Positions 863 through 14,887 of a DNA stretch of 64,000 nt are shown one piece after another (positions within the stretch are counted from its first letter, which is position 1; each line of letters starts with the position of its first letter). The position numbers and the translations under genes are program-made. The notes beneath the pieces were generated by a model. The model ran no database searches. It saw nothing but the letters and a program-made list of their open reading frames with translations, and was not told where the DNA came from. Source of the DNA: Micromonospora antibiotica (GTDB lineage: Bacteria > Actinomycetota > Actinomycetes > Mycobacteriales > Micromonosporaceae); assembly GCF_017599305.1 (NCBI RefSeq), contig NZ_JAGFWR010000002.1, positions 372,001 to 436,000 of the forward strand. Reading direction: 5' to 3'.

Positions 863-910
863 CCCGTCCGGCGCGCTGACCCGCCCGCCCGCAACCCCGG
901 CCGGTGCGGC

Positions 911-1000
911 GGCACCCCGGTCGACGCGGCCCCACCCCGGTCGACGCGGCCCCACCCCGGTCGACGCGGCCCCACCCCGGTCGACGCGGCGGCACCGGGC
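911..1000. repeat. 20-bp tandem repeat between convergent genes
   Basis: The unit tcgacgcggccccaccccgg is perfect at 921-940, 941-960 and 961-980, with degenerate partial copies on either side (911-920 and 981-1000). It is non-coding and lies in the 241-nt space between the DUF3866 gene and the convergent PLD-like gene. I see no hairpin terminator there; the array could be a simple replication-slippage product. Confidence 0.85.
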
Positions 1001-1103
1001 CGGCGCGGCGACCCCGGTCGGCTGGAGTCGGCGGCGGATCCGGGAGGGCGGGCGGCGCGGGTCCGGTGCCCGGACAGGCGGTGGGCGTCGTGCCCGGGCC
1101 CGT

Positions 1104-1892
1104 TCAGTCGCCCGGCTGGTCCCCGGGCCGGCCGTCGGCGTCGACCGGTCGGGCCGCCGCCCAGATGTGGCGGAACTGGTCGATCCAGTAGGCGTACCAG
1201 CGGTCGCTGTCGCGCCGGTGGAACTCCAGGTGCATCCGGCCCGAGGTGGACTCGTTGTGGAAACCGTGCAGCTCCACGATCACCCGGCCGTGCCGGCTCT
1301 GCGGGTCGATCGCCACCAGGCTGAACCCGGGGTTGAAGTCGAGCACCCGATGCTCGACGACGCCGGGGACCGGCCAACCGGCCATCGCGGCCAACCGGCC
1401 ACGGGTGGTGGTGATGGACGGCCGGAGCCGCTGCAACGCGAAGTCGACCGCGTCGTCGAGCTGCCGTACGGCCTGCTCCACCGCCGGTGACGCCGGATCC
1501 AGCAGCACCACCCGGACGACCCCACCGGGCCGGGCGAGCACCGACGTGCGCAGTGCGTCGCAGTGGGCCGGCGACAGGATGTTGACCGCCGACGGCGCAT
1601 AGACCCACACCTCCTGGGCGGTACGCAGCCGGTCCGGGAACGGCCGGGCGTCGAACGCCACCCGGTCGTCGAGGAAGGCGTCCAACGTGCCCGCCCGCTC
1701 GTCGGGGACGGTGATCCGGTACACCAGCAGCGCGATGCCGGCGAGCAGGACGCTCCACAGCACCTCCACCGGCACCAGGTCACCGAAGGCGGAGACGACG
1801 GCGAGCGCCGCGGCGACCAGGGTCACCGCGTACGCCTCCAGATTGCGTCCCCGCCGCACGTCGTGTCCGATCCTGCGCACCGTCCCGGCCAT
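1104..1892 (-). CDS. Two-TM membrane protein with PLD-like soluble domain
   Basis: 262 residues starting MAGTVRRIGH. The ATG at 1892 has an AGGAGG site 5 nt upstream, which fixes the start although the frame stays open further upstream. Residues about 20-36 and 42-60 are two hydrophobic segments. The C-terminal 170 residues face the cytoplasm and contain a VWVYAPSAVNIL strand, a VVRVVLLDP strand and a terminal HLEFHRRDSDRWYAYWIDQFRHIW block. That pattern resembles degenerate phospholipase-D/DUF5919-type sensor domains, but no HKD motif is seen. It is the last gene of the ubiquitin-like operon, 86 nt after the previous stop. A membrane-linked effector or sensor role is inference only. Confidence 0.7.
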   Translation of the reverse strand: MAGTVRRIGHDVRRGRNLEAYAVTLVAAALAVVSAFGDLVPVEVLWSVLLAGIALLVYRITVPDERAGTLDAFLDDRVAFDARPFPDRLRTAQEVWVYAPSAVNILSPAHCDALRTSVLARPGGVVRVVLLDPASPAVEQAVRQLDDAVDFALQRLRPSITTTRGRLAAMAGWPVPGVVEHRVLDFNPGFSLVAIDPQSRHGRVIVELHGFHNESTSGRMHLEFHRRDSDRWYAYWIDQFRHIWAAARPVDADGRPGDQPGD

Positions 1893-1978
1893 CCGCCCCT
1901 CCTGTCGTCTCGGTCGTCGATGGCACCGCGTCGGGGCCGGTCGCCTCCGCCGGGTGGCTGGGCTGCTCACCGGCCGGG

Positions 1979-2773
1979 TCAGTCCGGCGACTCGGCGGCT
2001 CCCCCGGGGCGTGTCCCGGCGATCTCCCGTCGACGCCACCGGCGCAGATACGCCCGGGCCCGTCGACGGGTCTGCGGCGACATCGCCTCGTCCCCGGCGA
2101 TCCGGGCGAGGTCGTCCTGCACCGCCGTACGCAGCGCCGGCTCCCCGGCCACCCGGATCGCCAGGTTGATCAGGGCGTCGTTGCCCGACTGCAACCACTT
2201 GCGCAGGATCGGCACGGCGTCGCGCTGGTTGAGCAGTTCGGTCCGGAGCTTGCCCATCCGGTCGACGTACTTGACGCGCAGGCTCTCCACCAGGGCGTGG
2301 TGCGCCTTGCCGAGGCTCTGCAGGTCCGCCGACTCGCTGAGGGCGCCGGCCACCTCCAACGCCTGCTGCCAGCGCAACAGCCCGGTGATGATGTCCTGCA
2401 GGCGCTTGTCGTCCGACTCGGAATCGAACGGGGCGGACCCGGTGTCCGACGTCGGGTCGCTCGCCGCGGACTCGTCCGGACCGATCAGCGAGGTGGGATC
2501 GACCAGCGAGGTGGGACCCGCGTACTGCTTGCTGATCCGGGCCAGTTCCTCGGTGAAACCGGCCTGCACCGAGTAGGAGATCTCGACCGGATCGAGATCC
2601 GGCACCTCCACCTTGATCATCGCCGAGGTGAGCGGACCGTCGGGCAGGTTCAGGGACACGTCGACGTCCTTCAGGTTGACCGTCATCCTGAGCGCGTCGA
2701 GCGCCCGTGCCGGCGGAACCTGCAGGGGATGCGCCCGGAGCAGGGGCAGTTGGTCCCCGGGGGGTCCCGTCAC
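1979..2773 (-). CDS. Unknown protein of the ubiquitin-like operon (264 aa)
   Basis: 264 residues from a GTG at 2773 that overlaps the upstream stop by 4 nt (GTGA). Residues about 30-75 form a beta-rich unit (MTVNLKDVDVSLNLP...EVPDLDPVEISYSVQAGF). Residues 80-120 are a Ser/Asp-rich linker with a repeated PTSL motif. The C-terminal half is helical and contains segments such as VPILRKWLQSGNDALINLAIRVAG that read like HEAT-type repeats. The protein ends in a basic RRRARAYLRRWRRRE stretch. I do not recognise the family. Translational coupling suggests it works with the preceding SIR2-type proteins. Confidence 0.7.
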   Translation of the reverse strand: MTGPPGDQLPLLRAHPLQVPPARALDALRMTVNLKDVDVSLNLPDGPLTSAMIKVEVPDLDPVEISYSVQAGFTEELARISKQYAGPTSLVDPTSLIGPDESAASDPTSDTGSAPFDSESDDKRLQDIITGLLRWQQALEVAGALSESADLQSLGKAHHALVESLRVKYVDRMGKLRTELLNQRDAVPILRKWLQSGNDALINLAIRVAGEPALRTAVQDDLARIAGDEAMSPQTRRRARAYLRRWRRREIAGTRPGGAAESPD

Positions 2774-4563
2774 CGGTCCGCTCCGTCCGGCGGGTGCGGC
2801 CGTGGGTCGATCTGGAAGTCCGGTGCGCCGTCCTGCGGGTCGGGCGTCGTCGCCGCGTCGTGCCGGGGTACCGGGTCCACGGTGAACACCGGTTGGATCG
2901 CCTCCGTCGCGTCCGCCAGCCGGCGTACCACCTCCGACCAGAGACGGCCGAGTTCCTCCACGGACAAGCCGCCCGTCGACCCGTCCGCCGGCACGTCGGC
3001 GTCCGGTGCACCGTCCGCAGGCGCCCTACCGGCGGCGGCCACCCGGGAGATGGTCAGGCCCACCTCCTGCCGCCAGATGTCGAGCGCGTCGTGCAACCAG
3101 TCCGGATCGGACTCCGGCAGGGCGTCGACCTGCATGATCGCCCCGCCCAGTCGGGCCACGCAGTCCTCGTCGAGCCAGGCCAGCAGCGGACCCAGCTCCC
3201 GCGTGATCCACTCGACGACCGCGTCGACCGTGACGAACATCTGCTCCGGCAGGGCCTCCACCCGGACCGTGTCGCCGCGGCCATAGTTCGCCCGCGCCCA
3301 GTCGGTCACCGCCAGCGGACAGAACAGGACGATGTGCGAGCCGTTCGGATCGACCGATTCTCGCCACCACTCGATGACCGCCGTCAGTCGGACCCAGAAA
3401 CCGGGGTCCGGGGAGGACAGGTCACACAGTTCACCGACGACGACGGTGTCCGCGCCCCGGGCCCGCAGGCCGAGCCACCGGCCGATCGCGGTCAGGTCCG
3501 CCCCGCCGCGCAGGCCGGCGGAGGACAGACCCTCGTCGAGCCCCGCGAGCAGCCACTCCGCCGTCCGTCGGCGGGTACGTTCACCATCGATGCCGATCAG
3601 GGTGACCGGCCCGGCGAACGCCGACTCCCGCAGCCCGGCCAGTTGGTCGACGGTGAGCAACGGAGGGGTCGCCTCGGGCCGCAGCACCGTCCAGCCGGCC
3701 GACGGCGACGCGGTCGGCGGCACAGCGGCGGACGAGGCGGCCCCGGACAGGCCGAGGCTCTCCGCCAACTGGTTCAGGATGTCGGTCGTCGCGTCCTCGT
3801 CGTCCTCGCTCTCGTCACCGACCACCAGGTGGAAGTCGGCCTCCACCCAGGAGTGTTTGAGGCTGTACCGGCCCAGCAGGTACAGCGGCGTGAGCTTGCG
3901 GTAGAGGGTGCTGAGCGGGACGTTGAGCCGGCACCAGCCCCACCCGTAGACGACGTCGAAGTCGTCGAGGAACTCCACCAGCGCGGCACGCATGTCCCGG
4001 AGTTGGGTGCCGTGCTCGTCGAGCCGGGTCGGTTCCAGCCCGGCGATCAGCATCTCCGCCGCGTCGACCAGCACCGGGCGGGCCCGTTCGCTGCCCTGCC
4101 GGCGGAGATCGAACATGCTCGGCTTGTGCCCCACCGCCTCGATGTGGCGCGGCACGATGGAGCCGGCGGCGATCATGTGTCGACAGAGGTGTTCATAGAG
4201 ATACCGGGCCGGGTCGGTCACCATGACCGCGTTGAAGTAGCCCTGGTTCATCAGCTCGGCCAGGTTGGCGATCGCCGTCAGGTCGCCGTCCGCCGCGTCG
4301 GTCGGTGTGGTGTACCGCTTCAGGAAGTCGTCCCGGGCCAGCGACGAGGAGCGGAAAGCCCAGAAGTCGCCGATCTTCTGGTCGTCATTCTTGGTCGGCG
4401 CCCGGTCCCCGCGCAGCGCGTCGACGAACCGGGTCGGTCGGGCGTGGTTGAGCAGCGCCGCCCCACCGTCCAGACCGATCACCAGGGCCGAGGACACCTT
4501 GCTCTCCCGGTTCGCCCGCATCCGTTGGGCCAGGTCGGCCACCTGCAGCTCGGACCTCTTCAC
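2770..4563 (-). CDS. Large unknown protein with degenerate SIR2-like N-terminus
   Basis: 597 residues; its ATG overlaps the TGA of the SIR2 gene by 4 nt. Residues 22-40 (KVSSALVIGLDGGAALLNH) sit where a SIR2 Gly-rich loop would be. Residues about 115-128 (FNAVMVTDPARYLYEHL) resemble the SIR2 'TxNxD..lE' strand with the Asn lost. A VVYGWGWCRLNV segment follows, comparable to the GYSFxxxNV segment of the intact SIR2 next door. I therefore read the N-terminal half as a catalytically dead SIR2-like domain. The C-terminal half contains a VTLIGIDGERTRR segment and a DTVVVGELCDLSS strand that look like a P-loop fold without the Walker Lys. The tail is acidic and Pro-rich. Function unknown; a regulatory partner of the active SIR2 protein is inference. 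Confidence 0.7.
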   Translation of the reverse strand: MKRSELQVADLAQRMRANRESKVSSALVIGLDGGAALLNHARPTRFVDALRGDRAPTKNDDQKIGDFWAFRSSSLARDDFLKRYTTPTDAADGDLTAIANLAELMNQGYFNAVMVTDPARYLYEHLCRHMIAAGSIVPRHIEAVGHKPSMFDLRRQGSERARPVLVDAAEMLIAGLEPTRLDEHGTQLRDMRAALVEFLDDFDVVYGWGWCRLNVPLSTLYRKLTPLYLLGRYSLKHSWVEADFHLVVGDESEDDEDATTDILNQLAESLGLSGAASSAAVPPTASPSAGWTVLRPEATPPLLTVDQLAGLRESAFAGPVTLIGIDGERTRRRTAEWLLAGLDEGLSSAGLRGGADLTAIGRWLGLRARGADTVVVGELCDLSSPDPGFWVRLTAVIEWWRESVDPNGSHIVLFCPLAVTDWARANYGRGDTVRVEALPEQMFVTVDAVVEWITRELGPLLAWLDEDCVARLGGAIMQVDALPESDPDWLHDALDIWRQEVGLTISRVAAAGRAPADGAPDADVPADGSTGGLSVEELGRLWSEVVRRLADATEAIQPVFTVDPVPRHDAATTPDPQDGAPDFQIDPRPHPPDGADR

Positions 4564-5372
4564 GTCAACTGCTCCGTGACGGCCCGCATCAGGCCGGCGA
4601 AGCTGCCCAGCTTCCCGTCGATGAACCTCGGGCTGTAGTTGCGCTGGGCCATCAGCGACAGCACCATCGGGGCGTCGGGGAAGGCGATGTTGGCGTAGTA
4701 GAGGGGGGAACGGTCCCGGCTGAACGCCTGCAACACGTTGAGGTGGAAGAAGGAGTACCCGCAGACCACCGCCGGTCGACTGGTGACGTCCCGGACGAGC
4801 TGCTCGATGCGCTCCTCGTACCGGATGATCTCGCGGCTGGTCATCAGGTTCAGCCCGAGGTCCAGCCCGCCGTGCAGCTTGATGATCCGGATCCGGGGGC
4901 TACCCGGTGCGGTGATCTGGAGCACCGCCGCCTCGGGCCGGTACTGCGGCACGTCGATCACCCGGTAGTCGTGGTGTTCGCGCAGCCCGGCGGCGGCGAG
5001 CGCCTGCTCCAGCAGATCGTCGATGTTGACGGTCACCACCATGTCCGCGTACCCGCGGGTGAGCAGCCCGACCAGTTGGCGGTACGGCGAGTCCGGGGTG
5101 AGCGGACGCTCCAGGTACCGCCGGAACAGGCCGGCCCGCGCCACCCCCGGCCCGAGCCCGTCACAGAACAGGTCGAACCGGTACTGGGGGCTGCCCCACG
5201 TGTCGACGTCGTCACCCAGCACGGCGGCGAGCAGCTCCGCGTTGAGCGGCACCCCGTCGTGCACCGAGCAGCCGGCGCCGAGCCAGAAGAAGGGCTTCTC
5301 CGCCGACGCCTGGTCATCCCGGAACTGCCGCAGATGCCGGACCAGTTCCCGCACACTGTCCTGCGCGGTCAT
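4560..5372 (-). CDS. SIR2-like NAD-dependent protein
   Basis: 270 residues. The start ATG at 5372 follows a GGAGGT site 5 nt away and lies 2 nt after the AAA+ gene stop. SIR2 signatures are visible in order: FFWLGAGCS (residues 28-36, NAD Gly loop), VTVNIDD (113-119, the TxNxD motif) and IIKLHGG with His167, the position of the catalytic histidine. A VVCGYSFFHLNV strand follows near 202-213. Sirtuin-type domains in bacterial defence usually cleave NAD to stop infected cells, and some are deacylases; the zinc-finger insert of classical deacetylases is absent here. Its position in a ubiquitin-like operon suggests an effector NADase, but activity is not provable from sequence. Confidence 0.85.
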   Translation of the reverse strand: MTAQDSVRELVRHLRQFRDDQASAEKPFFWLGAGCSVHDGVPLNAELLAAVLGDDVDTWGSPQYRFDLFCDGLGPGVARAGLFRRYLERPLTPDSPYRQLVGLLTRGYADMVVTVNIDDLLEQALAAAGLREHHDYRVIDVPQYRPEAAVLQITAPGSPRIRIIKLHGGLDLGLNLMTSREIIRYEERIEQLVRDVTSRPAVVCGYSFFHLNVLQAFSRDRSPLYYANIAFPDAPMVLSLMAQRNYSPRFIDGKLGSFAGLMRAVTEQLT

Positions 5373-5374
5373 CG

Positions 5375-7069
5375 CTACCTCCGTAGGTGTCGGAGCAGGG
5401 TCAGGTCCACCACCGGTTCCTCCGACCACGCCTGCTCGGAGACGGGATGCCAGGCCGGGCCGGTGCCGGGCAGCAGGGAGGCGACGCCGCCCTGGACGTA
5501 GTGGCCGTAGGTGCGCTCGACGTCGCGCGCCATGTCGTCGTGGCCCAACTCCCGCAGCGCGGAGACCGACTGCCGCACCCAGTCGCGGATGTGCATCGGC
5601 TGCTGGTACGTCTCCAGCGCGGCCAGCAGCTGCTGCCGGGTCAGCTGCCCGGTCGGCCCCTGCGGGCCGGTGGACGAGATGACCCCCATGACGGTGTCCG
5701 AGACGACCTTCTGGATGTCACCCGGCGCCAACCCGTGCGACCTGCGGGCCAACTCGACGACGTCGATGTCGTCGGCACGCACCCCGGCGTCGAGCTGGTC
5801 GAGGTGCACCTGGAAGATCTTCGCCCGGACCTGCTCGTCGGGCAGCTCGACGGGGATCATCTCGTCGAAGCGGCGCAGCAGTGCCAGGTCCATCGCCCAG
5901 AGCCGGTTCGTGCAGCCGAAGAAGATCACCGCGGCCTGTGACTCACGTAGCCGGTCGATCTCCTGGAGCAGGTGCGAGGTGAGCTGCACCCGCCAGTCCT
6001 GACCGCCCTCCCGGGACATGCCGATCGAGTCGATCTCGTCTCCGAACAGGATCGCCGGTTGGGCGTCGATCGCCTGGTCGAAGATCTCCGACACCCGCTT
6101 CTCGTCGTCACCGACGTAACGGTTCAACACGTCGTTGAGACGCATCCGGAAGATCGGCAGTGGCCGGCCGTGTCGACGCCGGTACTCGCCGCTGAACGCC
6201 CGGATGAGGAAGGTCTTGCCGCATCCCGACGGCCCGAACAACAGGATGGACCTGCTGGGTGACTGGTGGTAGCGGGCCAGCCGGTCGGCGAGGCCCTCGC
6301 TGTCGAGGTCCCCGAAGTAGGTCTCGAAGATCCGCTGACGTAGCCGCCCGGTGAACGTACCCGCCTCGTCCGCCCCTCCGACCTGCGCGAACGTCGGTTC
6401 GGTCGAGCCGGTCACCGGCCGGGACCCCGACCCCGGCTCGGCGGCGTCCACCTCCGCGGGCAGCCGGGGGTGCCGCGGCTGCAGGGCCCGGACCCGACGC
6501 AGGTCCGTCGCGCACTGCTCCGGCCGGCCCAGCTCCTGGTGCACGTACGCGCGGGTGGCCAGCACCTCGGCGGACAGGTACCGGCCCAGCCCGCCGGGCA
6601 GCGGCGCGGCGTCGAGGAGCCCGGCGAGCCGGTCGCACGCCGCCACCGCCTCGACCGTCGGTTGCTGCTCGAACCCGGCCAGCAGCCGTGACAACGCGTC
6701 GGTCAGACTGTTCGCCACCAGTTCCTGGTGGGTGCTGCGCCCGATGGCACGCAGCAGCGACCCGACCGCCCGCTCGTGCTCGCCGCGCAGGTGCTGCAGG
6801 TGACCCAGCAGCGCGGCGGCGTCCGAGCCGGCGCCGAACTCGTCGAGGGCACGGGCCAGGTCCGCCTCGGCCACCGCGAGGTCCGCCGGGTCGGGCTGCC
6901 CGTCCCCGTCCCGCAGCAGGGTCCAGGCCCGACCGTAGTACGGCTCCCACTGGTCCGCGCCCAACTCGATCGCCTTGGCGAAGTGTTCCCGGGCCGACCG
7001 GAGGTCGTCCCGGCCCAGTGCGTCGACACCCTCGTGGTAAGCCGACGTCCAGACCTTCTCGGGCTCCAT
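5375..7069 (-). CDS. TPR-AAA+ ATPase of the ubiquitin-like operon
   Basis: 564 residues from an ATG that overlaps the upstream stop by 1 nt (TGATG). Residues about 7-200 are helical and contain TPR-like units (for example LGRDDLRSAREHFAKAIELG). Residues 225-480 are a classical AAA+ module of the Vps4/CDC48 type: Walker A GPSGCGKT at 279-286, Walker B ILFGDEID at 340-347, a CTN sensor-1 segment and a LALLRRFDEMIPVELP arginine-finger region. A C-terminal helical tail ends LLRHLRR. It may remodel or unfold modified proteins, or gate the SIR2 partner encoded next. It is cytoplasmic, with no TM segment or signal peptide. Confidence 0.85.
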   Translation of the reverse strand: MEPEKVWTSAYHEGVDALGRDDLRSAREHFAKAIELGADQWEPYYGRAWTLLRDGDGQPDPADLAVAEADLARALDEFGAGSDAAALLGHLQHLRGEHERAVGSLLRAIGRSTHQELVANSLTDALSRLLAGFEQQPTVEAVAACDRLAGLLDAAPLPGGLGRYLSAEVLATRAYVHQELGRPEQCATDLRRVRALQPRHPRLPAEVDAAEPGSGSRPVTGSTEPTFAQVGGADEAGTFTGRLRQRIFETYFGDLDSEGLADRLARYHQSPSRSILLFGPSGCGKTFLIRAFSGEYRRRHGRPLPIFRMRLNDVLNRYVGDDEKRVSEIFDQAIDAQPAILFGDEIDSIGMSREGGQDWRVQLTSHLLQEIDRLRESQAAVIFFGCTNRLWAMDLALLRRFDEMIPVELPDEQVRAKIFQVHLDQLDAGVRADDIDVVELARRSHGLAPGDIQKVVSDTVMGVISSTGPQGPTGQLTRQQLLAALETYQQPMHIRDWVRQSVSALRELGHDDMARDVERTYGHYVQGGVASLLPGTGPAWHPVSEQAWSEEPVVDLTLLRHLRR

Positions 7070-9537
7070 CAGCCACCTCCCTGCGTCCCGTTGACCGGCC
7101 ACACGACACAGCGGGAGACGTGGGACCGTCCCCGACCGGCGGTCACCCGGATGCCGCCGTGCGCGCCGATGCCGTCGACCAGTGCGTCCGCGACGGTGAC
7201 ACCGGCGGCGACCGCCAGCGCCCCGTACGCCGCCGGCGTCAGTCCACCGGCGAACAACTCGGTGTAGCCGGTGCAGTCGCCGATCGCCCGCGGGTCGGTG
7301 TCCGCCGTCGCGGCCACCAGGACGTGCGGGGCGAACTCCGCCGTGCCGAACAGCCGCTGGAGCTGGTCCAGCACCGGCCCCGGGCCACCGGTGAACAGCA
7401 CGCACACCGGCCCGGTCACCCCGGTGGGTGGCACGACGCCGGTACGGATCCAGGGATTGTCGTCGTCGGGGGGCGTGCCGCCGGCCGCCGGGGCGGACCG
7501 CTCCGGCGGCGGGTCGGGTTCGCGGGCGGAGCTGACCAGCGCCGCCAACTCCTCCAGCCGGGCCTCGTCCGGGCGGGGCACCACGTCCAACTCGAAGTCG
7601 GACCAGTCCCGGTCACCGGTGGCCTTCGGCACCGACCCGATCGCCCCGACGGTGTCGACGATCGAACCCAGCAGCAACGTCGCCGCCACGGGGGCTTCTA
7701 CGGCGTCCGTGGGCAGGTCGACCAGGACCCGGCCGGCCGAGCCGAGCGGCTCGACGGAGAAGTCCGGCCGTTGGAACGTCATCGCCACGGCCCGCCGCAG
7801 GATGCTGACGACGCCCAGGGCCCGGTCGAGCAGGAGGGCGGCGCGGCGCAGGTCACCGGTGTGGTGGAACGTCAGCCCGGCGCGCTCGGAGACCATCGCC
7901 ACGGCGTGCGTGCGGGACGCGTCGGCGTCGTCACTGGCGTAGGCGCGCCTGGTAAGCAGGCCGACGGCGTAGACGATGGCCCTGACCACCGCGTCGGCGG
8001 CCGGGTCCGCACAGTGCGGCAACCGGGCCAGCAGACACTGCGCCAGCAGGTCGCGCAGCGCCGGGGCCCGGTCCAGTTCCTCCAGCCACCAACCCGCCTG
8101 CCCCTGGCCGTCGAGCTGGGGTCGCAGCCGGTGCCAGCCCGGGGGGACCGTACCGACCGGCGTCTCCCGGATCCACACCACCGGCCAGCCCTGCCGGGAC
8201 AGCGTGTCCCCCCACGCGCCGATCCGGGCTTCGGTCACCGGGGTGCCGATCAGCCGGCTGCGGACGCCCGGGCCGATCCGCAGGCTGGCGACGCCGCCCC
8301 GGTCGGCCAGGCCGACCCGCAGCGGCACCCCAGGCGGGGCGTCCGGGTAGCCGGTCAACCGGGCAGGTCGGCGGAACGGGTCCCCGCTGGCCGGGGGCAC
8401 GGCCACCCGGGTCGGTGCCGACGCCGGGACGACGGGCGGTGGCACCTCCCGCAGCAGTTCGGCGTCGGCGAGCAGGGCCGGCAGGAACCACCCGCTGCGC
8501 CGACCGACCGTCCGCAACTGGCGGGCCGCCACGGGCAACCGGTGACGCAACACCCGGCCGTCGAGCAGTGACACGAGTTCGGGTAGCCGGGCCTCCAGAC
8601 CCCGCTGCATCATCCAGTCGCCGATGCGCAGACCGTGGGCGAAGGCCCGGTGCAGCTCCCGGTCGGAGCCGAGCCGGGAGTGCTCCTCGACCAGCATCCG
8701 GCGGTAGCGCCAGGCCGCCGCGAGGACCGGATCCACCCGGTTCGGGCGCCACGGGTCCGGGCCCGGCCCCACCGCCGCCTCGTCGGTGAGGGCGCTGGCC
8801 AGGTAGAAGCAGGCGTACGCGGTGGTGGGGTCACCCAGCCGGAGCAGGGCCCGCCCGCACCAGACCAGTTCCGTGCGCACCTCGGACTCGAGCCAGCCGG
8901 ACAGCCTCTCGTCCCCGACGATGGTCAGGAGCTGCTCGACGATGATCCGGTATTCGCCCAGGCCGTACCAGACGTCACCCCGGGCGAGGTAGGGACCGGT
9001 CAGATCGCGCAGCAGCCGCCGTTCGACACCCTCCGGATCGGTGGCCGGCGACTCGCCGTACGGCAGGTCGTCCTCGCCGTCGAAGAGGGCGGCGAGCCGC
9101 TCCCGCTTCGGCTCCGGGCCCTCCACCCCCAGCGGTGCCACCGGTGCCGGCACGGGGACCGGTTCCGACGGGCGCAGTGCCGGCTCCTGGGCCAACGCCG
9201 CCAGCTCGGACAGCTCGGCCCAGTCCGCCCGCAGGCCGGTGCCGACCAGGTGAACGGTGTGCGTGAGCAGCGCGTGGGCCAGGCCCGGCAGACCGAGTGC
9301 CGCCCAGCCCCGGATCACCGCCAGCCACCAGCCGCACCGGCCGGTGTGCAGTTGGGCCAGCAGTTTCCCGTATCCGGCCGGGACGGTGTCACCGGGGTCG
9401 GCGGCCGGTACGAACACCGCAGGGTCCACGGCCAGCATGACCGCCGCACTGAACTCGCGGGCCACGACCACCCGCTCACCCGCGTCGAGCAGCCGCGGCC
9501 AGTTGCCCCCGACCTTTCCGCGCCGGCCGGTGGTCAA
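7069..9537 (-). CDS. Large helical protein of unknown function in the ubiquitin-like operon
   Basis: 822 residues if read from the TTG at 9537, which has a GGAGGAGG site 10 nt upstream; a GTG at 9567 is an alternative. The first ~450 residues are mostly helical with TPR-like alternation (ALLRLGDPTTAYACFYLASALTDEA). A middle part (about 450-640) is mixed alpha/beta. The C-terminal ~120 residues, after a Pro/Asp-rich linker, form a compact alpha/beta unit (GPVCVLFTGGPG...HVLVAATADTDPRAIGDCTGYTELF) with a final GAHGGIRVTAGRG segment. I considered a caspase-like CHAT domain but could not align a clear His/Cys dyad. Function unknown. The stop overlaps the AAA+ start. Confidence 0.7.
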   Translation of the reverse strand: MTTGRRGKVGGNWPRLLDAGERVVVAREFSAAVMLAVDPAVFVPAADPGDTVPAGYGKLLAQLHTGRCGWWLAVIRGWAALGLPGLAHALLTHTVHLVGTGLRADWAELSELAALAQEPALRPSEPVPVPAPVAPLGVEGPEPKRERLAALFDGEDDLPYGESPATDPEGVERRLLRDLTGPYLARGDVWYGLGEYRIIVEQLLTIVGDERLSGWLESEVRTELVWCGRALLRLGDPTTAYACFYLASALTDEAAVGPGPDPWRPNRVDPVLAAAWRYRRMLVEEHSRLGSDRELHRAFAHGLRIGDWMMQRGLEARLPELVSLLDGRVLRHRLPVAARQLRTVGRRSGWFLPALLADAELLREVPPPVVPASAPTRVAVPPASGDPFRRPARLTGYPDAPPGVPLRVGLADRGGVASLRIGPGVRSRLIGTPVTEARIGAWGDTLSRQGWPVVWIRETPVGTVPPGWHRLRPQLDGQGQAGWWLEELDRAPALRDLLAQCLLARLPHCADPAADAVVRAIVYAVGLLTRRAYASDDADASRTHAVAMVSERAGLTFHHTGDLRRAALLLDRALGVVSILRRAVAMTFQRPDFSVEPLGSAGRVLVDLPTDAVEAPVAATLLLGSIVDTVGAIGSVPKATGDRDWSDFELDVVPRPDEARLEELAALVSSAREPDPPPERSAPAAGGTPPDDDNPWIRTGVVPPTGVTGPVCVLFTGGPGPVLDQLQRLFGTAEFAPHVLVAATADTDPRAIGDCTGYTELFAGGLTPAAYGALAVAAGVTVADALVDGIGAHGGIRVTAGRGRSHVSRCVVWPVNGTQGGG

Positions 9538-9569
9538 CTCCCCCGCACCTCCTCCGGTCGTCCCCACGC

Positions 9570-11219
9570 TCAGAACCGGCACAGGACGTGGTCGATGCGA
9601 CCGTGCAACCGGCCGAGGTGGTCGGTGCAGATGGTGGCCACCGACTCCTGCCCGGCCACGCTGACGATGTGCTGGGTCAGTCGTTGCGTGCGCAGGTCGA
9701 AGGCGGCGATCTGGTTGCCGCCGTCGTCGTCGAACAGGGCGTAGAGGGTGTCGCCGCCGAGGGACAGGTCCCGCACCGGCCACCGGTCCCAGGGTGGGTC
9801 GAGGGCGATGTCGACCAGCGGTGTCCCGTCGTCCTCGGCGGGTCGCCAGAGCCGGAGCCGGCCGTCCTGCACGGCCCCGAGCAGCGGCGTCGACCCACCG
9901 GACTCCTTCCAGCGGGGCAGCAGCCGACACTGCGCGGACGGCAGGTCCCCCCGCGTGCCGGAGCCGAGCGACGTGCGCTCGCCCTCCTGGACGAGGGGCA
10001 GCCGGTGCCACTGCCGGGCGGTACGCACCCAGACCGCCTCCGGGTCGCCGACGGCCTCCAGCGGATCCCCCTCCAGTGGGGGCAGCGCGAGTCGGGCGAA
10101 CTGGAACCGGAACCGGGTCCCCTGCTCCGAGTCCTCGGCCGCCGAGGTCTCCATCCGCAGGACGTGGTGGTTGGCCATCAGCACCCAGAGCATGCCCTCC
10201 TGGTCGTAGTGCACCGAGACGGGCGGCGACTCGATCCGGACCGGCCAGACCAGCCGCCGGGATATGTCGAAGCGCTCCATCAGCAGGTCACCCGGGGTGT
10301 AGGAGTAGCACTCGCCCCGGTGTACGGCGATCCGTTCCTTGAACCGGGTGGAGGCCAGCCGTAGCCGTCCCTGGCGACCACGGGTGTGTCGCAGCCGCCG
10401 CTGGACCGCCTCCAACTCCTCGACGCAGCCGGGGTCGGCACCGGCCGTGAGCGCCACCTCGACCAGGAGCCGGAACTGGTCGATGCCGGCGTCGGTGCCC
10501 CACCGGCGACGGGGGCTGGCCGCCGCGGTCAGCAGCGTGGCCAGCCGGGACTCCGTGGCCACGCCCAGTGCGGGCAGCAACTCGGCCGGCCCTGGTCGGC
10601 TCGGCCGGTCGTCGTCGTCCCGGTCGACGCACTCCTCCAGGAACCGCTGGTGTCGTTCGGCGGCGCTGTCGGGGCCGGTCATCCGGACCAGGTAGTCGTC
10701 GAGCGCCTCCAGTTCGGTGCCGGCGAGCCGCCAGAAGCCCACCGGGAGTCCCCACTCGCCGGCGCCGACCACGGCGGAGACGTACCAGGGCGCATTGAAG
10801 TGTGCCTGGTGCATCTTGTGGTCGGTCCCCGACATGAACGGCTTGCCGCCGACGTGTGAGTGGTACCAGCCGACGATGTACTCGTCGACGCTGTCGGCGA
10901 GCCGGGCGGCGATCGCCTGGATCGACGACTGGTCGAACTCGAAGTGCACCGCGCTGGCGTTGTCGCTGGGCACCGCCAGGTGGTCGGTGACCGTGACGAT
11001 CCAACCGGTGCCGTTGACGAAGTGACGGCCCAGCAGGATGCCGCCGACCTCGGTGCCGGCCTGCTGCGCGGACTGCCGCCGGATGCCGCTGAGTACGGTG
11101 TCGTCGACGTGCAGGGTGACCACGGGGCCGGACCGCAACAGTTCACTCGACGGTGCCGGGTTGTGCTGGGCGAGCGGGCGGCGGACGGGTTCGATGCGGA
11201 AGTCCGGCGAGACGTCCAT
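9570..11219 (-). CDS. JAMM/MPN isopeptidase fused to beta-rich C-terminal region
   Basis: 549 residues. The ATG at 11219 overlaps the ubiquitin-like gene's stop by 1 nt. The JAB/MPN domain covers about residues 30-190 and has all the metal-site residues of JAMM deubiquitinases: Glu57 in EVGGILLG, then His120-Ser-His122, Ser130 and Asp133 (HSH-x7-S-x2-D). Such enzymes cut ubiquitin-like tails or isopeptide bonds. Residues about 190-290 are helical. From about 300 on the protein is beta-strand rich with repeated LWVL, VWVRTARQWHRLP, RLRLWRP and DTLYALFDD elements, suggesting a beta-propeller or similar binding platform. Its likely role here is maturation and removal of the operon's ubiquitin-like protein. 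Confidence 0.88.
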   Translation of the reverse strand: MDVSPDFRIEPVRRPLAQHNPAPSSELLRSGPVVTLHVDDTVLSGIRRQSAQQAGTEVGGILLGRHFVNGTGWIVTVTDHLAVPSDNASAVHFEFDQSSIQAIAARLADSVDEYIVGWYHSHVGGKPFMSGTDHKMHQAHFNAPWYVSAVVGAGEWGLPVGFWRLAGTELEALDDYLVRMTGPDSAAERHQRFLEECVDRDDDDRPSRPGPAELLPALGVATESRLATLLTAAASPRRRWGTDAGIDQFRLLVEVALTAGADPGCVEELEAVQRRLRHTRGRQGRLRLASTRFKERIAVHRGECYSYTPGDLLMERFDISRRLVWPVRIESPPVSVHYDQEGMLWVLMANHHVLRMETSAAEDSEQGTRFRFQFARLALPPLEGDPLEAVGDPEAVWVRTARQWHRLPLVQEGERTSLGSGTRGDLPSAQCRLLPRWKESGGSTPLLGAVQDGRLRLWRPAEDDGTPLVDIALDPPWDRWPVRDLSLGGDTLYALFDDDGGNQIAAFDLRTQRLTQHIVSVAGQESVATICTDHLGRLHGRIDHVLCRF

Positions 11220-11533
11220 CAGGTCGCCGCCCCCGCCGTCCGGTCGCCCGCGCGCGCCTCCCGGGTCATGATGAGGGTGTGGCCGGCCTCCACCTGCGCC
11301 GACCGCAGGGTCTCGGACACCCCGAGGAAGCGGTTGCGTTCCTGCCACATCAGCCGGTACGGGATCACGTTGCCCGTCTGGTCCTGTTGGGGGAAGGGCA
11401 GGGCCGGGTTCGCCACGATCTTGGCGATGATCCCCTGCACGGGAATGTCGAGCGGGAGGCTGACGTCCCACTTCTCGGTCAACATGGTGGTGGCCAGGAT
11501 GACCGGGATCGATTCGAGCGGCGGATTCGTCAT
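11219..11533 (-). CDS. Ubiquitin-like modifier (YukD-like)
   Basis: 104 residues; the ATG overlaps the stop of the upstream gene by 4 nt. The order beta (PVILATTML), beta (KWDVSLPLDI), helix (VQGIIAKIVANP), beta (YRLMWQE), short turn (RFLGVSETLRSAQVEAG) and beta (HTLIMTREA) matches the ubiquitin/YukD beta-grasp fold, with the typical 'L..sgV..Gh.LiM' end. The C-terminus is REARAGDRTAGAAT, with no Gly-Gly; it may be trimmed by the JAMM enzyme encoded next, or conjugation may use another residue. Its place between E2/E1 and JAMM genes supports the assignment more than the sequence alone. Confidence 0.8.
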   Translation of the reverse strand: MTNPPLESIPVILATTMLTEKWDVSLPLDIPVQGIIAKIVANPALPFPQQDQTGNVIPYRLMWQERNRFLGVSETLRSAQVEAGHTLIMTREARAGDRTAGAAT

Positions 11534-12087
11534 GCGTCACCTTCTGCCGGTGTGGACCATTCCTGGATGCGGTTCACCGAGATGTCGAAGTCGAGATCCT
11601 GCTCCGGCTGGCCGAGCAGGGTGTGGGCGGAGGTCTCCTCCGCCCGCCGATGGACCGCCTCGAACAGTGCGCCGACGGTCAGGTCCGTGGCGATGAGGGC
11701 GATCTCCACGCCGGTGTAGGTGCCGAGGCGGCACACCGTCTGCAACAGGTCCTGGAACGTCCCCGCATGCCACTGCACCGCCGGCACCTCGGCCTGGATG
11801 AGCACGCACCCCTGCACCAGCAGGAACTTCGCCTGTCGGCTGTGGACGTTCCACTCCGACACCAGCCGCAGCACGGGTCCCCGGGCGGTGAGACCGACCT
11901 CCCGTTGCAGCAGGGCGCGCAGGTAGACCCAGTGCGGCGTCGACTTCACCTCGATCAGCAGCGGGTAGTGGTAGCCGGGCACCGGGCAGCGGTAGCCGGT
12001 GACGACGGTGTTCTCGTCGACGACCTCGCAGGTCCAGCCGATCTGCGCGAACAGGGCGGCGATGGCCTTGCCGTCAGGCCTGCTCAT
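11530..12087 (-). CDS. YbjN-like (type III chaperone-like fold) protein
   Basis: 185 residues starting MSRPDGKAIAALF; the ATG at 12087 lies 14 nt inside the end of the E2 gene. The pattern of an N-terminal helix, GWTCEVVDENTVVTGYR, a LIEVKSTPHWVYLRALL segment, RLVSEWNVHSRQAKFLLVQGCVLIQAEVP and a final long helical hairpin resembles YbjN/DUF1790-type proteins, which share the fold of type III secretion chaperones. No catalytic residues stand out. In this operon it could be a scaffold or a chaperone for the ubiquitin-like protein or for E2. That is inference from position. Confidence 0.65.
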   Translation of the reverse strand: MSRPDGKAIAALFAQIGWTCEVVDENTVVTGYRCPVPGYHYPLLIEVKSTPHWVYLRALLQREVGLTARGPVLRLVSEWNVHSRQAKFLLVQGCVLIQAEVPAVQWHAGTFQDLLQTVCRLGTYTGVEIALIATDLTVGALFEAVHRRAEETSAHTLLGQPEQDLDFDISVNRIQEWSTPAEGDA

Positions 12088-12742
12088 CCGGGCCCCCTTC
12101 CCGTCCGGTCGAGTCCGGCTCGACCGTCGCCAGGCCGGGTTCGACCAACGCCGGACCCGGCTCCGTCGACGGCAGGTCGGGACCGGCCGGCGGCTGACCC
12201 GGCTCCGTCGACGGCAGGTCGGGACCGGCCGGCGGCGGGCTCGCCCGCGGTCGCAGGTCGAGGTCGAAGGCCAGGTCACGCACGGGTGTCGGATCGATCG
12301 GCACCACTGGTTCGTCGGCCTCCAGGTTGATCCCGAGCCACCGGGCCGCCCCGCGGTCCAGCGGGTCGTAGATGTTGAACGACTTGTACTGGACCAACTC
12401 GCACAACTGGACGCAGAGTTCGGCCACGGACATGCCGGGGTACCAGATGTCGCCGGTGCAGACCCGGGGCGGCCGGATGTTCGGGTGGAAGATCGGTGTC
12501 TTCCACACGATCTCCGGGGGCAGCAGCGGGAAGCTACCGCCCAGGGTGAGGGTGAACTCGTGGTGCGACGACAGGCCCAGCTCCTCCTGGTTGAACACCA
12601 GGCCACGGCAGGTGAGCACCACGTCGTACCGGGTCGGTGGGAGCCCGTGCGCGGTGAAGGTCACCATCGAGCTGGCCCTGACCAACTGCCGCATGTCGGT
12701 GTACTCGGTGTCCAGTCGCCGGTCGCGGGGCGTCATCGCCAT
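12074..12742 (-). CDS. E2 ubiquitin-conjugating-like enzyme
   Basis: 222 residues. The ATG at 12742 has an AGGAG site 6 nt upstream and begins 1 nt past the E1 stop. The UBC fold is recognisable: N-terminal helix, strands around TFTAHGLPPTRYDVVLTC, FTLTLGGSFPLLPPEIVW, then the canonical HPN tripeptide (residues 86-88) in KTPIFHPNIRPPR and the probable catalytic Cys95 in RVCTGDIWYPG, with the W-x-P that follows the active site in eukaryotic E2s. Residues about 165-222 form a Pro-rich tail that contains a 14-residue repeat. It should accept the ubiquitin-like protein from the E1 encoded upstream and pass it to targets. Confidence 0.87.
   Translation of the reverse strand: MAMTPRDRRLDTEYTDMRQLVRASSMVTFTAHGLPPTRYDVVLTCRGLVFNQEELGLSSHHEFTLTLGGSFPLLPPEIVWKTPIFHPNIRPPRVCTGDIWYPGMSVAELCVQLCELVQYKSFNIYDPLDRGAARWLGINLEADEPVVPIDPTPVRDLAFDLDLRPRASPPPAGPDLPSTEPGQPPAGPDLPSTEPGPALVEPGLATVEPDSTGREGGPDEQA
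12155..12235. repeat. Direct 39-bp repeat (42-bp period) inside the E2 tail
   Basis: Identical 39-nt copies at 12155-12193 and 12197-12235. They encode two 14-residue units of the form PPAGPDLPSTEPG in the Pro-rich C-terminal tail of the E2 protein. Because the period is a multiple of three, the reading frame is kept, so copy number could vary between strains. Confidence 0.85.
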
Positions 12743-12743
12743 G

Positions 12744-14012
12744 TCAGCTCCTGCCTCTGCCGGTACGCGCCGCCGGGTCCTGCGGACCACGAGGCGTCGG
12801 GGCCTGCGGACCACCGTCCGACGGGTCCGGCGGCACCCGGGGCGGCGCACCACCGGCGCCGCCCCGACCTCCGTCGGAGCCCACCGGTTCGGCCAGTTCG
12901 AAGACCACGGTCCCCCCGCTGCCGTGCGCCTCGACCCAGCTCCAGCGGGGGAAACCCGTCTCGTGCGGCGACAGCCGGTGCCACGGCTGCGTCCCGTCGA
13001 TCTGGTCGACCAGGTCGAGGGCCACCTCGGCGGCGCAGGTCGGGCACCGGACCGGGCGGTCCCCCGGGTGGACCCGGTGGACCTCGTCCTGCCGGCCGCA
13101 ACCGAGGCAGCTCCAGCCGCGCAACACCGTCAGCGGCAGGCGCAGCACCACCTCGTCGTCGGCCCGCGCCGTCCGCCACCGCTCGAGGATGTCGACCCAC
13201 CGGTCGGTGGCCCACGAGCCGGGGCTCCCGGTCGGCACCGCCGGGGTCGGGTGCAGCAGGCAGTCCGGGTTCACCGGGATGCCGACCTGCCAGAACCGGT
13301 CGTAGGCGAGGTCGAAGCGCAGTTCGTGGCCGATCGGCACGGTCATGTCGTGCCGGTCACGGCTGAGCCACCGCATCGCCTGCTGCGCCATCGACGCCCC
13401 GACGGTGGAGGCGACGGTCGGGGTGGTGGGCACCCCCCGGGCCGTCTCGGCACGGACCCGGTAGGCCAGGCAGGAGTGGCGCAGGGCGAGGTCCCGCAGG
13501 TCCTCGTCGGTCAGCCCGCAGACGTAGCACGGGCCGTCCGGCGGCAGGTAGAGGCGCACCGCGCCCTCCCAGGTGGTGAGGCCGCCGTCGATCAGCAGGA
13601 CACCGGCCTGCCCGGCGAGTTGGCCGAGCGCCACCCGGGCGGCCACGTTGTCCAGGCAGCCGAGCACCACGTCGGCGCGGTGGAGCAGCCCGGCCCCGAG
13701 ACCCGTGCGCAGGTCGTCGGCGATCACGTCGACCTGACAGTCCGGGTTGAGTTCACCGGCGGCCCGTACGACGGCGTCCACCTTGGCGGCACCGACGTCG
13801 GACGGTCGGTAGAGCACCGACCGGGAGAGGTTGCCGACCTCGACCGTGTCGAGGTCGACGACGGTGATCGTGCCCCAGCCGAGCAGGAGGAGGTTCTTCA
13901 GCACCTCGTTGCCGAGGGCACCCGCGCCGGCGACCACGGCGTGCGCGCCACGTACCTCGTCCTGGTCCCACCACTCGATGTCGGCCAGCCGGGAGTAGCG
14001 GTCCTGGGTCAT
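12744..14012 (-). CDS. E1-like ubiquitin-activating enzyme (ThiF/MoeB fold)
   Basis: 422 residues; the ATG at 14012 overlaps the stop of the RING-like gene by 4 nt. The adenylation domain shows GAGALG (29-34, nucleotide loop), VVDLDTVEVGNLSR (51-64), the conserved Lys77, and LDN at 120-122. A CYVC pair (Cys162, Cys165) begins the zinc site and Cys181 in RHSCLAYR is the best candidate for the thioester Cys, followed by the usual TPTVASTVGASMAQQAM helix. Unlike MoeB it has a second zinc-ribbon-like CLGC/CPTC set (302-305, 323-326) and a Gly/Pro-rich C-terminal tail. Its predicted job is ATP-dependent activation of the operon's ubiquitin-like protein. Confidence 0.9.
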   Translation of the reverse strand: MTQDRYSRLADIEWWDQDEVRGAHAVVAGAGALGNEVLKNLLLLGWGTITVVDLDTVEVGNLSRSVLYRPSDVGAAKVDAVVRAAGELNPDCQVDVIADDLRTGLGAGLLHRADVVLGCLDNVAARVALGQLAGQAGVLLIDGGLTTWEGAVRLYLPPDGPCYVCGLTDEDLRDLALRHSCLAYRVRAETARGVPTTPTVASTVGASMAQQAMRWLSRDRHDMTVPIGHELRFDLAYDRFWQVGIPVNPDCLLHPTPAVPTGSPGSWATDRWVDILERWRTARADDEVVLRLPLTVLRGWSCLGCGRQDEVHRVHPGDRPVRCPTCAAEVALDLVDQIDGTQPWHRLSPHETGFPRWSWVEAHGSGGTVVFELAEPVGSDGGRGGAGGAPPRVPPDPSDGGPQAPTPRGPQDPAARTGRGRS

Positions 14013-14524
14013 GTGGTCACCACCCGACCCACCGGCACCGGAACCGGCACCATGTGGCAGTCGCGCGAGTAGCACCGCGCGCCACGCAGGTACTCCCAGC
14101 AGTCCTCGCAGTAGCCCTCACCGCACAGGGGGCAGAGCACCACCTCCGCATCGACGGTGAAGGTGGTGTGGCACTGCTGGCAACGGTGCCCGACCAGCAC
14201 GTGCCCGGTGGGCAGTCGCAGCTGACGGACCTCGGAGAACCACGCCAACTGACCGGCGAAGGCCACCCGGTCACCGTGGTGCAGGACGGCGAGTCCGATG
14301 ATCCGTCGACCGTTGCGGACGACGTCCACCCCGTCCGGGATGATCAACGAGTGGCCCGCCCGGGACCGGGCGAGCCAGACCCCCGCGCCGTCTCCCGCGG
14401 TGTCCCGCAGCTCGGCGGTGGGCAGTCCCGCGCACGGCAGGTAGCCGTGCGTCCCCCGTTGGGGCAGCTGCACGGTGAAGTCGTCGAAGTCGAGGTACGG
14501 ACCGACGGCGGGGATCTCGATCAT
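14009..14524 (-). CDS. FHA-tail / RING-like zinc protein, candidate E3
   Basis: 171 residues from the ATG at 14524, which has a GGAGGG site 5 nt upstream; an open frame extends further but lacks such a site. Residues about 40-95 (GHSLIIPDGVDVVRNGRRIIG...LHHGDRVAF) look like the C-terminal half of an FHA or related beta-sandwich. Residues 115-157 carry eight Cys in a treble-clef/RING-like order: C115-x2-C118, C131-x2-C134, C139-x2-C142, C151-x4-C156 and His157. RING-type zinc proteins act as E3 ligases with E2 enzymes. As first gene of an E1-E2-Ubl operon, an E3 or adaptor role is plausible but unproven. Confidence 0.7.
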   Translation of the reverse strand: MIEIPAVGPYLDFDDFTVQLPQRGTHGYLPCAGLPTAELRDTAGDGAGVWLARSRAGHSLIIPDGVDVVRNGRRIIGLAVLHHGDRVAFAGQLAWFSEVRQLRLPTGHVLVGHRCQQCHTTFTVDAEVVLCPLCGEGYCEDCWEYLRGARCYSRDCHMVPVPVPVGRVVTT

Positions 14525-14887
14525 CAGCACCCTCCACGACCGGTTCCGGAGCAGCACTCGCGCGGCGGTGACCGGGGGCCGGTGGATCCGTGCCACCCGG
14601 AGCACCTCACGCACGGTGTGCGTAGGGAGACCCAGTGTTCTATGAGGATGCAAGTGCGGGGATCGACCGATGGTCCAGTGAGGACTGTCGACACAGCCCG
14701 GGCGGGTGACCCGACGGCAGTTTCCCGGCGCCGGGCCGGCCGCAGCGGGCCGGCAAGGCGACCGACCTGGCGGCGGTACAGCGTCCCTGACCTGCTGGAT
14801 CGGCATGGACGGGGGCTCTCGGCCGGCGGACCGCACCACCCGTCCCCCGCCGACTGACCGGTCGGCGGGGGCACTGTCGGATCAGCG
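14525..14887. other. Intergenic region upstream of the ubiquitin-like operon
   Basis: 363 nt between the start of the RING-like gene (minus) and the stop of the AhpD-like gene (minus). It holds the hairpin terminator at 14844-14871 and must hold the promoter of the 13-kb ubiquitin-like operon. The most AT-rich stretch is around 14635-14655, but I cannot point to a convincing -35/-10 pair. No further gene was seen. Confidence 0.6.
14844..14871 (-). terminator. Hairpin terminator after the AhpD-like gene
   Basis: A perfect 11-bp stem (arms 14844-14854 and 14861-14871) with a 6-nt loop, 16 nt beyond the stop of the AhpD-like gene. There is no U tract, which is common for actinobacterial terminators. 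It would insulate the ubiquitin-like operon from upstream transcription. Confidence 0.7.

What the first reader, a model, noticed from the sequence alone, without database searches (positions are those of the whole stretch)
1104..14524. Twelve-gene ubiquitin-like conjugation operon with E1, E2, Ubl, JAMM protease, RING-like protein, AAA+ ATPase and SIR2 proteins
Seen in sequence: one strand, 1-14 nt overlaps or tiny gaps between eleven genes, with recognisable E1 (GAGALG, Cys181), E2 (HPN, Cys95), ubiquitin-like and JAMM (HSH...S..D) proteins. Family knowledge: E1-E2-Ubl-JAMM sets occur in bacterial antiphage systems (Bil, Bub-type). Inference: the added TPR-AAA+, an intact and a degenerate SIR2, an 822-residue unknown and a membrane PLD-like protein make this a distinct, probably effector-bearing version in which protein tagging could gate NAD depletion.
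Basis: partly seen in the sequence, partly recalled or inferred. Interest (0 to 1): 0.95.

Follow-up and report, generated by a model that had tools for sequence, protein, structure and literature searches.

The report
Bacterial ubiquitin–p97–SIR2 operon
An actinobacterium (Micromonospora) carries a twelve-gene block, missing from the close relatives examined, that encodes look-alikes of the ubiquitin tagging cascade beside a p97-like ATPase and a pair of SIR2 proteins, and it would likely act as a phage defence in which protein tagging triggers destruction of the cell's NAD.

Summary
Twelve minus-strand genes (window 14524-1104) encode a RING-type protein, E1, E2, TY-chaperone-like protein, YukD-type Ubl, JAMM protease, an 832-residue unknown, TPR-AAA+, SIR2a, SIR2b and two smaller unknowns. 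Ten of eleven junctions lie between a 14-nt overlap and a 2-nt gap. All twelve recur as one unit in two Streptomyces species; only the last gene moves to the front. In 7 of 8 Micromonospora relatives fetched, DNA runs straight across the site (the eighth contig ends first), so this is a discrete ~14-kb insertion. Catalytic residues of E1, E2 and JAMM, eight RING cysteines and an Ala-Gly near the Ubl end are conserved. SIR2a keeps its catalytic residues; SIR2b has a predicted SIR2 fold without them. One deltaproteobacterial relative keeps the tagging core and AAA+ but has two trypsin-like proteases and no SIR2 gene there, suggesting an exchangeable effector. It fails tests for Bil, CBASS and the FtsH-ternary Ubl system. 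No paper I could search describes it, but the key 2011 paper was not held. Best reading: a defence system coupling Ubl conjugation to a SIR2 NADase. All activity is untested.

The parts
863..14887 (.). Extent of the insertion: the stretch between the stop codons of the convergent flanking genes (CMD and DUF3866)
   Evidence: Absent from 7 of 8 relatives fetched; in L128 the two stop codons lie a few bases apart
14009..14524 (-). Gene 1: RING-type protein, 171 aa; N-terminal part looks FHA-like to the eye (recalled, no call)
   Evidence: Prok-RING_1 E 1.1e-5, 25.7 bits, below the 29.1 cut-off; eight Cys invariant in 4 of 4
12744..14012 (-). Gene 2: E1, 422 aa
   Evidence: ThiF E 3.5e-44; GAGALGNE, C181, C162/C165, C251/H254 invariant in 5 of 5; best solved relative UBA7, E 1.1e-44
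12074..12742 (-). Gene 3: E2, 222 aa
   Evidence: UQ_con E 7.1e-7, above cut-off; HPN 86-88 invariant and C95 nearly invariant in 17; best solved relatives eukaryotic E2s, E 1.7e-9
11530..12087 (-). Gene 4: TY-Chap/YbjN-like protein, 185 aa
   Evidence: TY-Chap1 E 3.8e-4 and YbjN E 1.1e-3, both below cut-off
11219..11533 (-). Gene 5: YukD-type ubiquitin-like protein, 104 aa
   Evidence: YukD 25.0 bits, below the 27 cut-off; S. aurantiogriseus and MAG orthologues pass at 31.6 and 51.6, S. violaceus does not (22.3)
11246..11251 (-). Ala95-Gly96 of the Ubl, predicted mature C-terminus after JAMM trimming
   Evidence: Invariant in 6 of 6, followed by tails of differing length
9570..11219 (-). Gene 6: JAMM protease with a long C-terminal part, 549 aa
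   Evidence: Prok-JAB E 5.2e-10; E57, H120, H122, S130, D133 invariant in 4 of 4; Rpn11-like solved relatives
7069..9567 (-). Gene 7: unknown protein, 832 aa
   Evidence: No Pfam match; conserved in both Streptomyces cassettes; structure prediction failed, pLDDT 34
5375..7069 (-). Gene 8: TPR-AAA+ ATPase, 564 aa, single AAA domain
   Evidence: AAA E 2.7e-28 and TPR matches below cut-off; Walker A and B residues invariant in 4 of 4; best solved relatives VCP-like/p97, E 2.7e-50
4560..5372 (-). Gene 9: SIR2a, 270 aa, catalytic residues present
   Evidence: SIR2_2 E 3.7e-8; GAGCS, N116, D118, H167 invariant in 3 of 3
2770..4563 (-). Gene 10: SIR2b, 597 aa, predicted SIR2 fold in residues 6-277 without the catalytic residues, plus an unassigned C-terminal half
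1979..2773 (-). Gene 11: unknown protein, 264 aa
   Evidence: No Pfam match; conserved in both Streptomyces cassettes, E 1.5e-19 and 3.6e-16
1104..1892 (-). Gene 12: membrane protein, 262 aa; first gene in the Streptomyces cassettes
   Evidence: Hydrophobic stretch 17-63; E 1.6e-74 and 1.5e-73 in Streptomyces
14844..14871 (.). Perfect 11-bp inverted repeat just after the upstream CMD gene; possible end of its transcription unit
   Evidence: Seen by eye; no T run follows

Best explanation
This is a discrete twelve-gene insertion encoding homologues of an E1-E2-RING-Ubl-JAMM tagging cascade with a p97-like TPR-AAA+ ATPase and a SIR2 pair, and it likely works as a phage-defence system in which Ubl tagging and AAA+ remodelling would switch on the SIR2 NADase. 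Shown: gene content, conserved key residues, conservation as a unit, and the empty site. Inferred: JAMM trims the Ubl tail to expose Ala-Gly; E1, E2 and RING then attach the Ubl to a target, either a phage protein bound by the RING or 832-aa protein, or a regulator inside the complex; the TPR-AAA+ protein pulls the tagged protein out of a complex, as p97 does; this frees SIR2a from its inactive partner SIR2b, NAD falls and phage growth stops; JAMM removes tags and resets the system. The tagging core plus AAA+ would be the regulator and the SIR2 pair an exchangeable effector.
For: Conserved 12-gene unit in two Streptomyces species. Empty site in 7 of 8 relatives fetched. Patchy: strong E2 match in 1 of 160 Micromonospora and 1 of 392 Streptomyces genomes. 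The SIR2b profile hits 1 of 200 and 1 of 392 genomes, in each case the genome with the strong E2. Conserved catalytic residues. Nearest solved relatives are ubiquitin-pathway proteins. Best fold matches of SIR2b are antiphage SIR2 proteins. Effector difference in the MAG: two trypsin-like proteases. A related actinobacterial Ubl type is read as a conflict system in PMC7159879 (passages).
Confidence: 0.5

Rival explanations
1. Tagging is the safety catch: Ubl conjugation keeps SIR2a silent in healthy cells, and JAMM or AAA+ action after infection removes the tag and releases the NADase.
For: JAMM is encoded in the same operon, and a lethal NADase would need a constitutive brake. The gene content fits either sign of control.
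Against: Nothing in the sequence sets the sign. A separate RING-type protein fits regulated target choice at least as well as constant self-tagging.
Confidence: 0.18
2. A small ubiquitin-like degradation pathway: tagged proteins are unfolded by the TPR-AAA+ protein and degraded, perhaps by the host proteasome; the SIR2 proteins regulate it.
For: Homologues of E1, E2, RING, Ubl, Rpn11-like JAMM and a p97-like ATPase sit together. pafA lies 1.3 kb upstream. PMC7159879 proposes a degradation link for related Ubl systems (passage).
Against: The AAA+ C-terminus (LTLLRHLRR) has no HbYX proteasome-docking motif (motif recalled). pafA adjacency comes from the insertion site; no pafA was matched in the flanks of the Streptomyces loci. 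This reading leaves the SIR2 pair unexplained.
Confidence: 0.15
3. A developmental or stress-response system unrelated to phage, in which SIR2a acts as a deacylase or ADP-ribosyltransferase on Ubl-marked proteins.
For: The full sets lie in actinobacteria, which have complex development (recalled). SIR2b's fold also matches deacetylase sirtuins.
Against: Presence or absence between close relatives and low frequency fit an accessory system. The best fold matches are antiphage SIR2 proteins, and SIR2a's only convincing solved relatives are the Sir2 of a Sir2/Ago system (E 0.007).
Confidence: 0.12

Closest known systems
Prokaryotic tri-ligase Ubl systems with RING E3 and YukD-like Ubl (Burroughs, Iyer and Aravind 2011; recalled, paper not held)
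   Same: Separate E1, E2, RING, JAMM and YukD-type Ubl genes
   Different: Here the core comes with TPR-AAA+, a SIR2 pair, an 832-aa protein, gene 11 and a membrane protein. Whether the 2011 paper lists this set could not be checked
FtsH-ternary Ubl systems (PMC7159879, passages read)
   Same: E1, RING, JAMM, Ubl, E2 and an AAA+ ATPase in actinobacteria; read there as conflict systems
   Different: Those have MoxR, vWA and fvmX proteins, an EAD1-Ubl-E2 fusion and a caspase-like effector. Here Ubl and E2 are separate genes and no MoxR or EAD1 was found
Caldiarchaeum subterraneum ubiquitin operon (PMC5654768, abstract and passages read)
   Same: Ubl precursor, E1, E2 and RING with an Rpn11-type JAMM; trimming and cascade shown in vitro there
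   Different: No SIR2, TPR-AAA+ or other accessory genes are among the components named in what I read; an archaeal system
Bil (BilABCD), as described in PMC11354881 (passages read)
   Same: Ubl, E1, E2 and JAMM in one operon
   Different: BilA has two Ubl domains, BilB a CEHH motif and BilD two adenylation domains; no SIR2 or AAA+ in that four-gene set
Antiphage SIR2 NADases: SPARSA Sir2, ThsA, DSR2, KomC
   Same: SIR2a keeps the catalytic residues; SIR2b shares the fold by prediction
   Different: Those are controlled by Argonaute, cyclic ADP-ribose signals, a phage tail protein or a HAM1 partner (titles and abstracts; in part recalled), not by Ubl conjugation

Membership tests
Tri-ligase prokaryotic Ubl operon | E1 with adenylation motif and catalytic cysteine | tested here: met
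   ThiF E 3.5e-44; GAGALGNE and C181 invariant in 5 of 5
Tri-ligase prokaryotic Ubl operon | Classical E2 with HPN and catalytic Cys | tested here: met
   UQ_con above cut-off; HPN invariant, C95 nearly invariant in 17
Tri-ligase prokaryotic Ubl operon | RING-type E3 | tested here: inconclusive
   Eight invariant Cys in 4 of 4, but Prok-RING_1 below cut-off in 3 of 3 orthologues tested
Tri-ligase prokaryotic Ubl operon | YukD-type Ubl | tested here: met
   Above cut-off in 2 of 4 orthologues; the window's own is just below, 25.0 against 27
Tri-ligase prokaryotic Ubl operon | JAMM/JAB peptidase with complete motif | tested here: met
Tri-ligase prokaryotic Ubl operon | Covalent conjugation of the Ubl | not testable with these tools
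   Needs biochemistry
FtsH-ternary Ubl system (PMC7159879) | MoxR-type ATPase with vWA and fvmX proteins | tested here: not met
   No such Pfam match among the twelve genes; present in the sister locus L101
FtsH-ternary Ubl system (PMC7159879) | EAD1-Ubl-E2 fusion protein | tested here: not met
   Ubl and E2 are separate genes without EAD1; L101 has EAD1, YukD and UQ_con in one protein
Bil system | ISG15-like double Ubl, E2 with CEHH motif, E1 with two adenylation domains | tested here: not met
   Single Ubl domain, HPN-type E2 and one ThiF domain; definition from PMC11354881 passages
CBASS with Cap2/Cap3 | CD-NTase and a fused E1-E2 protein | tested here: not met
   No nucleotidyltransferase match among the twelve; E1 and E2 are separate genes; definition from PMC10097602 passages
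SIR2 NADase effector | SIR2 fold with catalytic Asn/Asp/His | tested here: met
   SIR2a: SIR2_2 above cut-off and N116, D118, H167 invariant in 3 of 3. SIR2b does not keep them
SIR2 NADase effector | NAD hydrolysis | not testable with these tools
   Needs an enzyme assay
p97/Cdc48 segregase | AAA domain of that clade | tested here: inconclusive
   Best sequence matches in the PDB are VCP-like/p97, but no tree was made
p97/Cdc48 segregase | N-D1-D2 double-AAA architecture | tested here: not met
   One AAA domain behind TPR-like repeats: it may work like p97 but is not a p97

The most novel reading that the evidence does not exclude
A bacterial innate-immune pathway built like the eukaryotic ubiquitin-p97-Rpn11 axis: a RING-directed YukD-type tag is read by a dedicated one-domain p97-like segregase that unlocks a swappable killer, a SIR2 active/pseudo-enzyme NADase pair in actinobacteria or a pair of trypsin-like proteases in a deltaproteobacterium. 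To my knowledge it would be the first Ubl-gated NADase.
Probability: 0.33. Interest if true: 0.88.

Novelty: new variant of a known kind. Interest (0 to 1): 0.72.

Why it matters
If right, it joins two separately known bacterial immune themes, ubiquitin-like tagging and SIR2 NAD depletion, in one operon with its own p97-like ATPase. It would give a compact genetic model for how a ubiquitin-p97-Rpn11 style pathway can control cell death, and it makes the question whether YukD-type Ubls are really conjugated directly testable. The apparent effector exchange (SIR2 or trypsin) lets the tagging core be studied apart from the killer.

Tried and rejected
Structure of the 832-aa protein: AlphaFold2 failed (pLDDT 34), so no fold is claimed. 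Foldseek also listed AAA+ proteins for the SIR2b model; I could not assign them to its C-terminal half. Plasmid, phage and viral-contig searches with the E2 found no relative. Homology of the MAG's four intervening genes to SIR2a, SIR2b, the 832-aa protein, gene 11 or gene 12 was no clearer than shuffled controls. No exact direct repeat of 11-20 nt between window 841-1110 and 14501-15000. Pup-proteasome link: considered because pafA is adjacent, set aside because that neighbourhood comes from the insertion site. Gene 11 as Trypco2: no Pfam match. 'PLD-like' for the last gene: not supported. Papers sought but not held: Burroughs 2011, Chambers 2024, Hör 2024. Literature searches whose listings showed no description of this gene set. 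Passages read: PMC1779556, PMC7159879, PMC8195603, PMC9503650, PMC11354881, PMC5654768 (also abstract), PMC10097602; no paper was read whole.
Full report
What is there. Twelve minus-strand genes run from 14524 to 1104. Eleven follow each other with junctions between a 14-nt overlap and a 2-nt gap; the twelfth starts 86 bp downstream. They encode, in order: RING-type protein, E1, E2, TY-chaperone-like protein, YukD-type Ubl, JAMM protease, an 832-aa unknown, TPR-AAA+, SIR2a, SIR2b, a 264-aa unknown and a membrane protein. The host is probably a Micromonospora: the closest E2 in the protein search (96% identical) is annotated to unclassified Micromonospora.

Boundaries. Upstream lie a carboxymuconolactone-decarboxylase family gene (CMD, 15439-14888) and pafA, the Pup ligase; downstream on the other strand is a DUF3866 gene. 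I fetched the region after pafA from 8 of the 12 same-genus relatives listed. In 7 of 8, BLASTN shows collinear DNA on both sides, pafA and DUF3866, with the block missing; the eighth contig ends too soon. One of the seven, L128, keeps CMD, and there the stop codons of the convergent CMD and DUF3866 genes lie a few bases apart. The insertion therefore fills window 863-14887. Its G+C (0.723) equals that of the window to its right (0.722), and no exact direct repeat of 11-20 nt was found between the two end regions tested.

One unit. A scan of named genomes with the E2 profile returned 69 loci. Two, Streptomyces aurantiogriseus and S. violaceus (55% E2 identity), hold relatives of all twelve genes in the same order, except that the membrane-protein gene leads instead of trailing. 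That it changes place without leaving the cluster argues that it belongs. The SIR2b profile hits 1 of 200 Micromonosporaceae and 1 of 392 Streptomyces genomes, in each case the genome with the strong E2 match (E2). Those two genomes also supplied rows of the profile, so this tests for stray copies elsewhere, not for independent gains.

Frequency. E2-profile matches at E 0.001 or better: 2 of 160 genomes in the genus, 11 of 354 in the family, 7 of 394 in the class and 5 of 392 Streptomyces; the sets overlap. Strong matches are the window genome (6e-87) and G370 (S. aurantiogriseus, 3e-76), then G411 (6e-31) and G690 (2e-25); the rest are 3e-17 or worse. The G411 and G690 loci hold E1, E2 and a Ubl (and a JAMM in G690; a JAMM relative also in the G411 stretch), but no relative of SIR2a, SIR2b, the 832-aa protein or the TPR-AAA+ protein appeared in the stretches read; the G690 contig is only 7.4 kb.

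Conserved residues. E1: GAGALGNE, C181, C162/C165 and C251/H254 invariant in 5 of 5. E2: HPN invariant and C95 nearly so in 17. JAMM: E57, H120, H122, S130, D133 in 4 of 4. RING: eight cysteines in 4 of 4, though the Pfam RING model stays below cut-off in 3 of 3 tested. Ubl: Ala95-Gly96 invariant in 6 of 6 with tails of differing length, as expected of a precursor trimmed by JAMM; Rpn11 trimming of a pro-ubiquitin is shown for Caldiarchaeum in PMC5654768 (passages). AAA+: Walker residues in 4 of 4. By sequence the best solved relatives are UBA7/UBA1 for E1, UBE2E, UBE2L3 and UBE2D for E2, Rpn11 for JAMM and VCP-like ATPase for AAA+. The Ubl profile reaches ubiquitin only weakly (single ubiquitin chains at E about 0.4; lower values come from summed polyubiquitin). 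Such similarity shows family, not activity.

Effector exchange. The Deltaproteobacteria MAG locus (L004, L091, L092) carries RING, E1, E2, TY, Ubl and JAMM in the same order on one strand, with the TPR-AAA+ gene at the other end of the run. Between AAA+ and RING are two trypsin-like proteases (E 1.8e-12 and 1.2e-6, both above cut-off) with apparent catalytic His, Asp and Ser by eye, and two unknowns. None resembles SIR2a, SIR2b, the 832-aa protein, gene 11 or gene 12 beyond shuffled controls. So the tagging core and AAA+ stay while the putative killer differs. This is one locus.

Sister type. The profile's weaker actinobacterial hits that I read are ten Micromonosporaceae loci (L093-L102) and two others (L042, L044). 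Relatives of E2, JAMM and AAA+ lie together in 11 of these 12, and a bpMoxR-family gene (named from L101) in 10 of 12; L094 has a lone E2-like gene. In L101 the E2 protein is an EAD1-YukD-E2 fusion beside bpMoxR and fvmX genes (Pfam was run on L101 and on one L095 gene only). These match the FtsH-ternary systems of PMC7159879 (passages), which that paper reads as conflict systems with a caspase-like effector. The word SIR2 does not occur in it. The window system has no MoxR, fvmX or EAD1 and is a different type.

Mechanism. Most likely the tagging core marks a phage-related protein or a regulator, the p97-like ATPase remodels the tagged complex, and SIR2a is released to consume NAD, with JAMM both maturing the Ubl and resetting the system. 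Every step after gene content is inferred. The opposite sign (tagging as the safety catch), a degradation pathway and a non-defence role remain open.

Verdict. Reading it as one distinct, effector-bearing system is supported; Bil kinship and the PLD label are not. Novelty: a new variant of tri-ligase bacterial Ubl systems, not described in the papers I could search; the most relevant 2011 paper was not available, so prior description there is not excluded.

Noticed in passing
window 15822-17180 and 27178-28263: The cassette sits 1.3 kb from pafA (Pup ligase), with a pafA-like (probably dop) gene also in the window, so two protein-tagging systems are neighbours here; no pafA was matched near the Streptomyces cassettes.
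   Followed up: partly
L091:17052-19845: Two trypsin-like protease genes between the TPR-AAA+ and RING genes of the deltaproteobacterial relative, in place of SIR2 genes.
   Followed up: partly
L091:6152-7261: Caspase-domain gene on the opposite strand, about 3.2 kb beyond the JAMM end of the same MAG operon.
   Followed up: no
L112:5331-10568: 1746-aa CHAT-domain protein on the opposite strand, a few kb from the E1-Ubl-E2 genes of G411.
   Followed up: no
window 5375-7069: The AAA domain's best PADLOC-DB matches are IetA models (E 7.9e-29), the ATPase of a known defence pair; this may be general AAA similarity.
   Followed up: no
L110, about 5.6 to 8.6 kb left of window position 1: A second ~3-kb block of the own genome is absent from relatives L122 and L123.
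   Followed up: no
L005, L006, L007, L009 and other Planctomycetes loci: Related genes in another layout: E2, JAMM, E1, second JAMM-like and second E2-like gene in a row.
   Followed up: no
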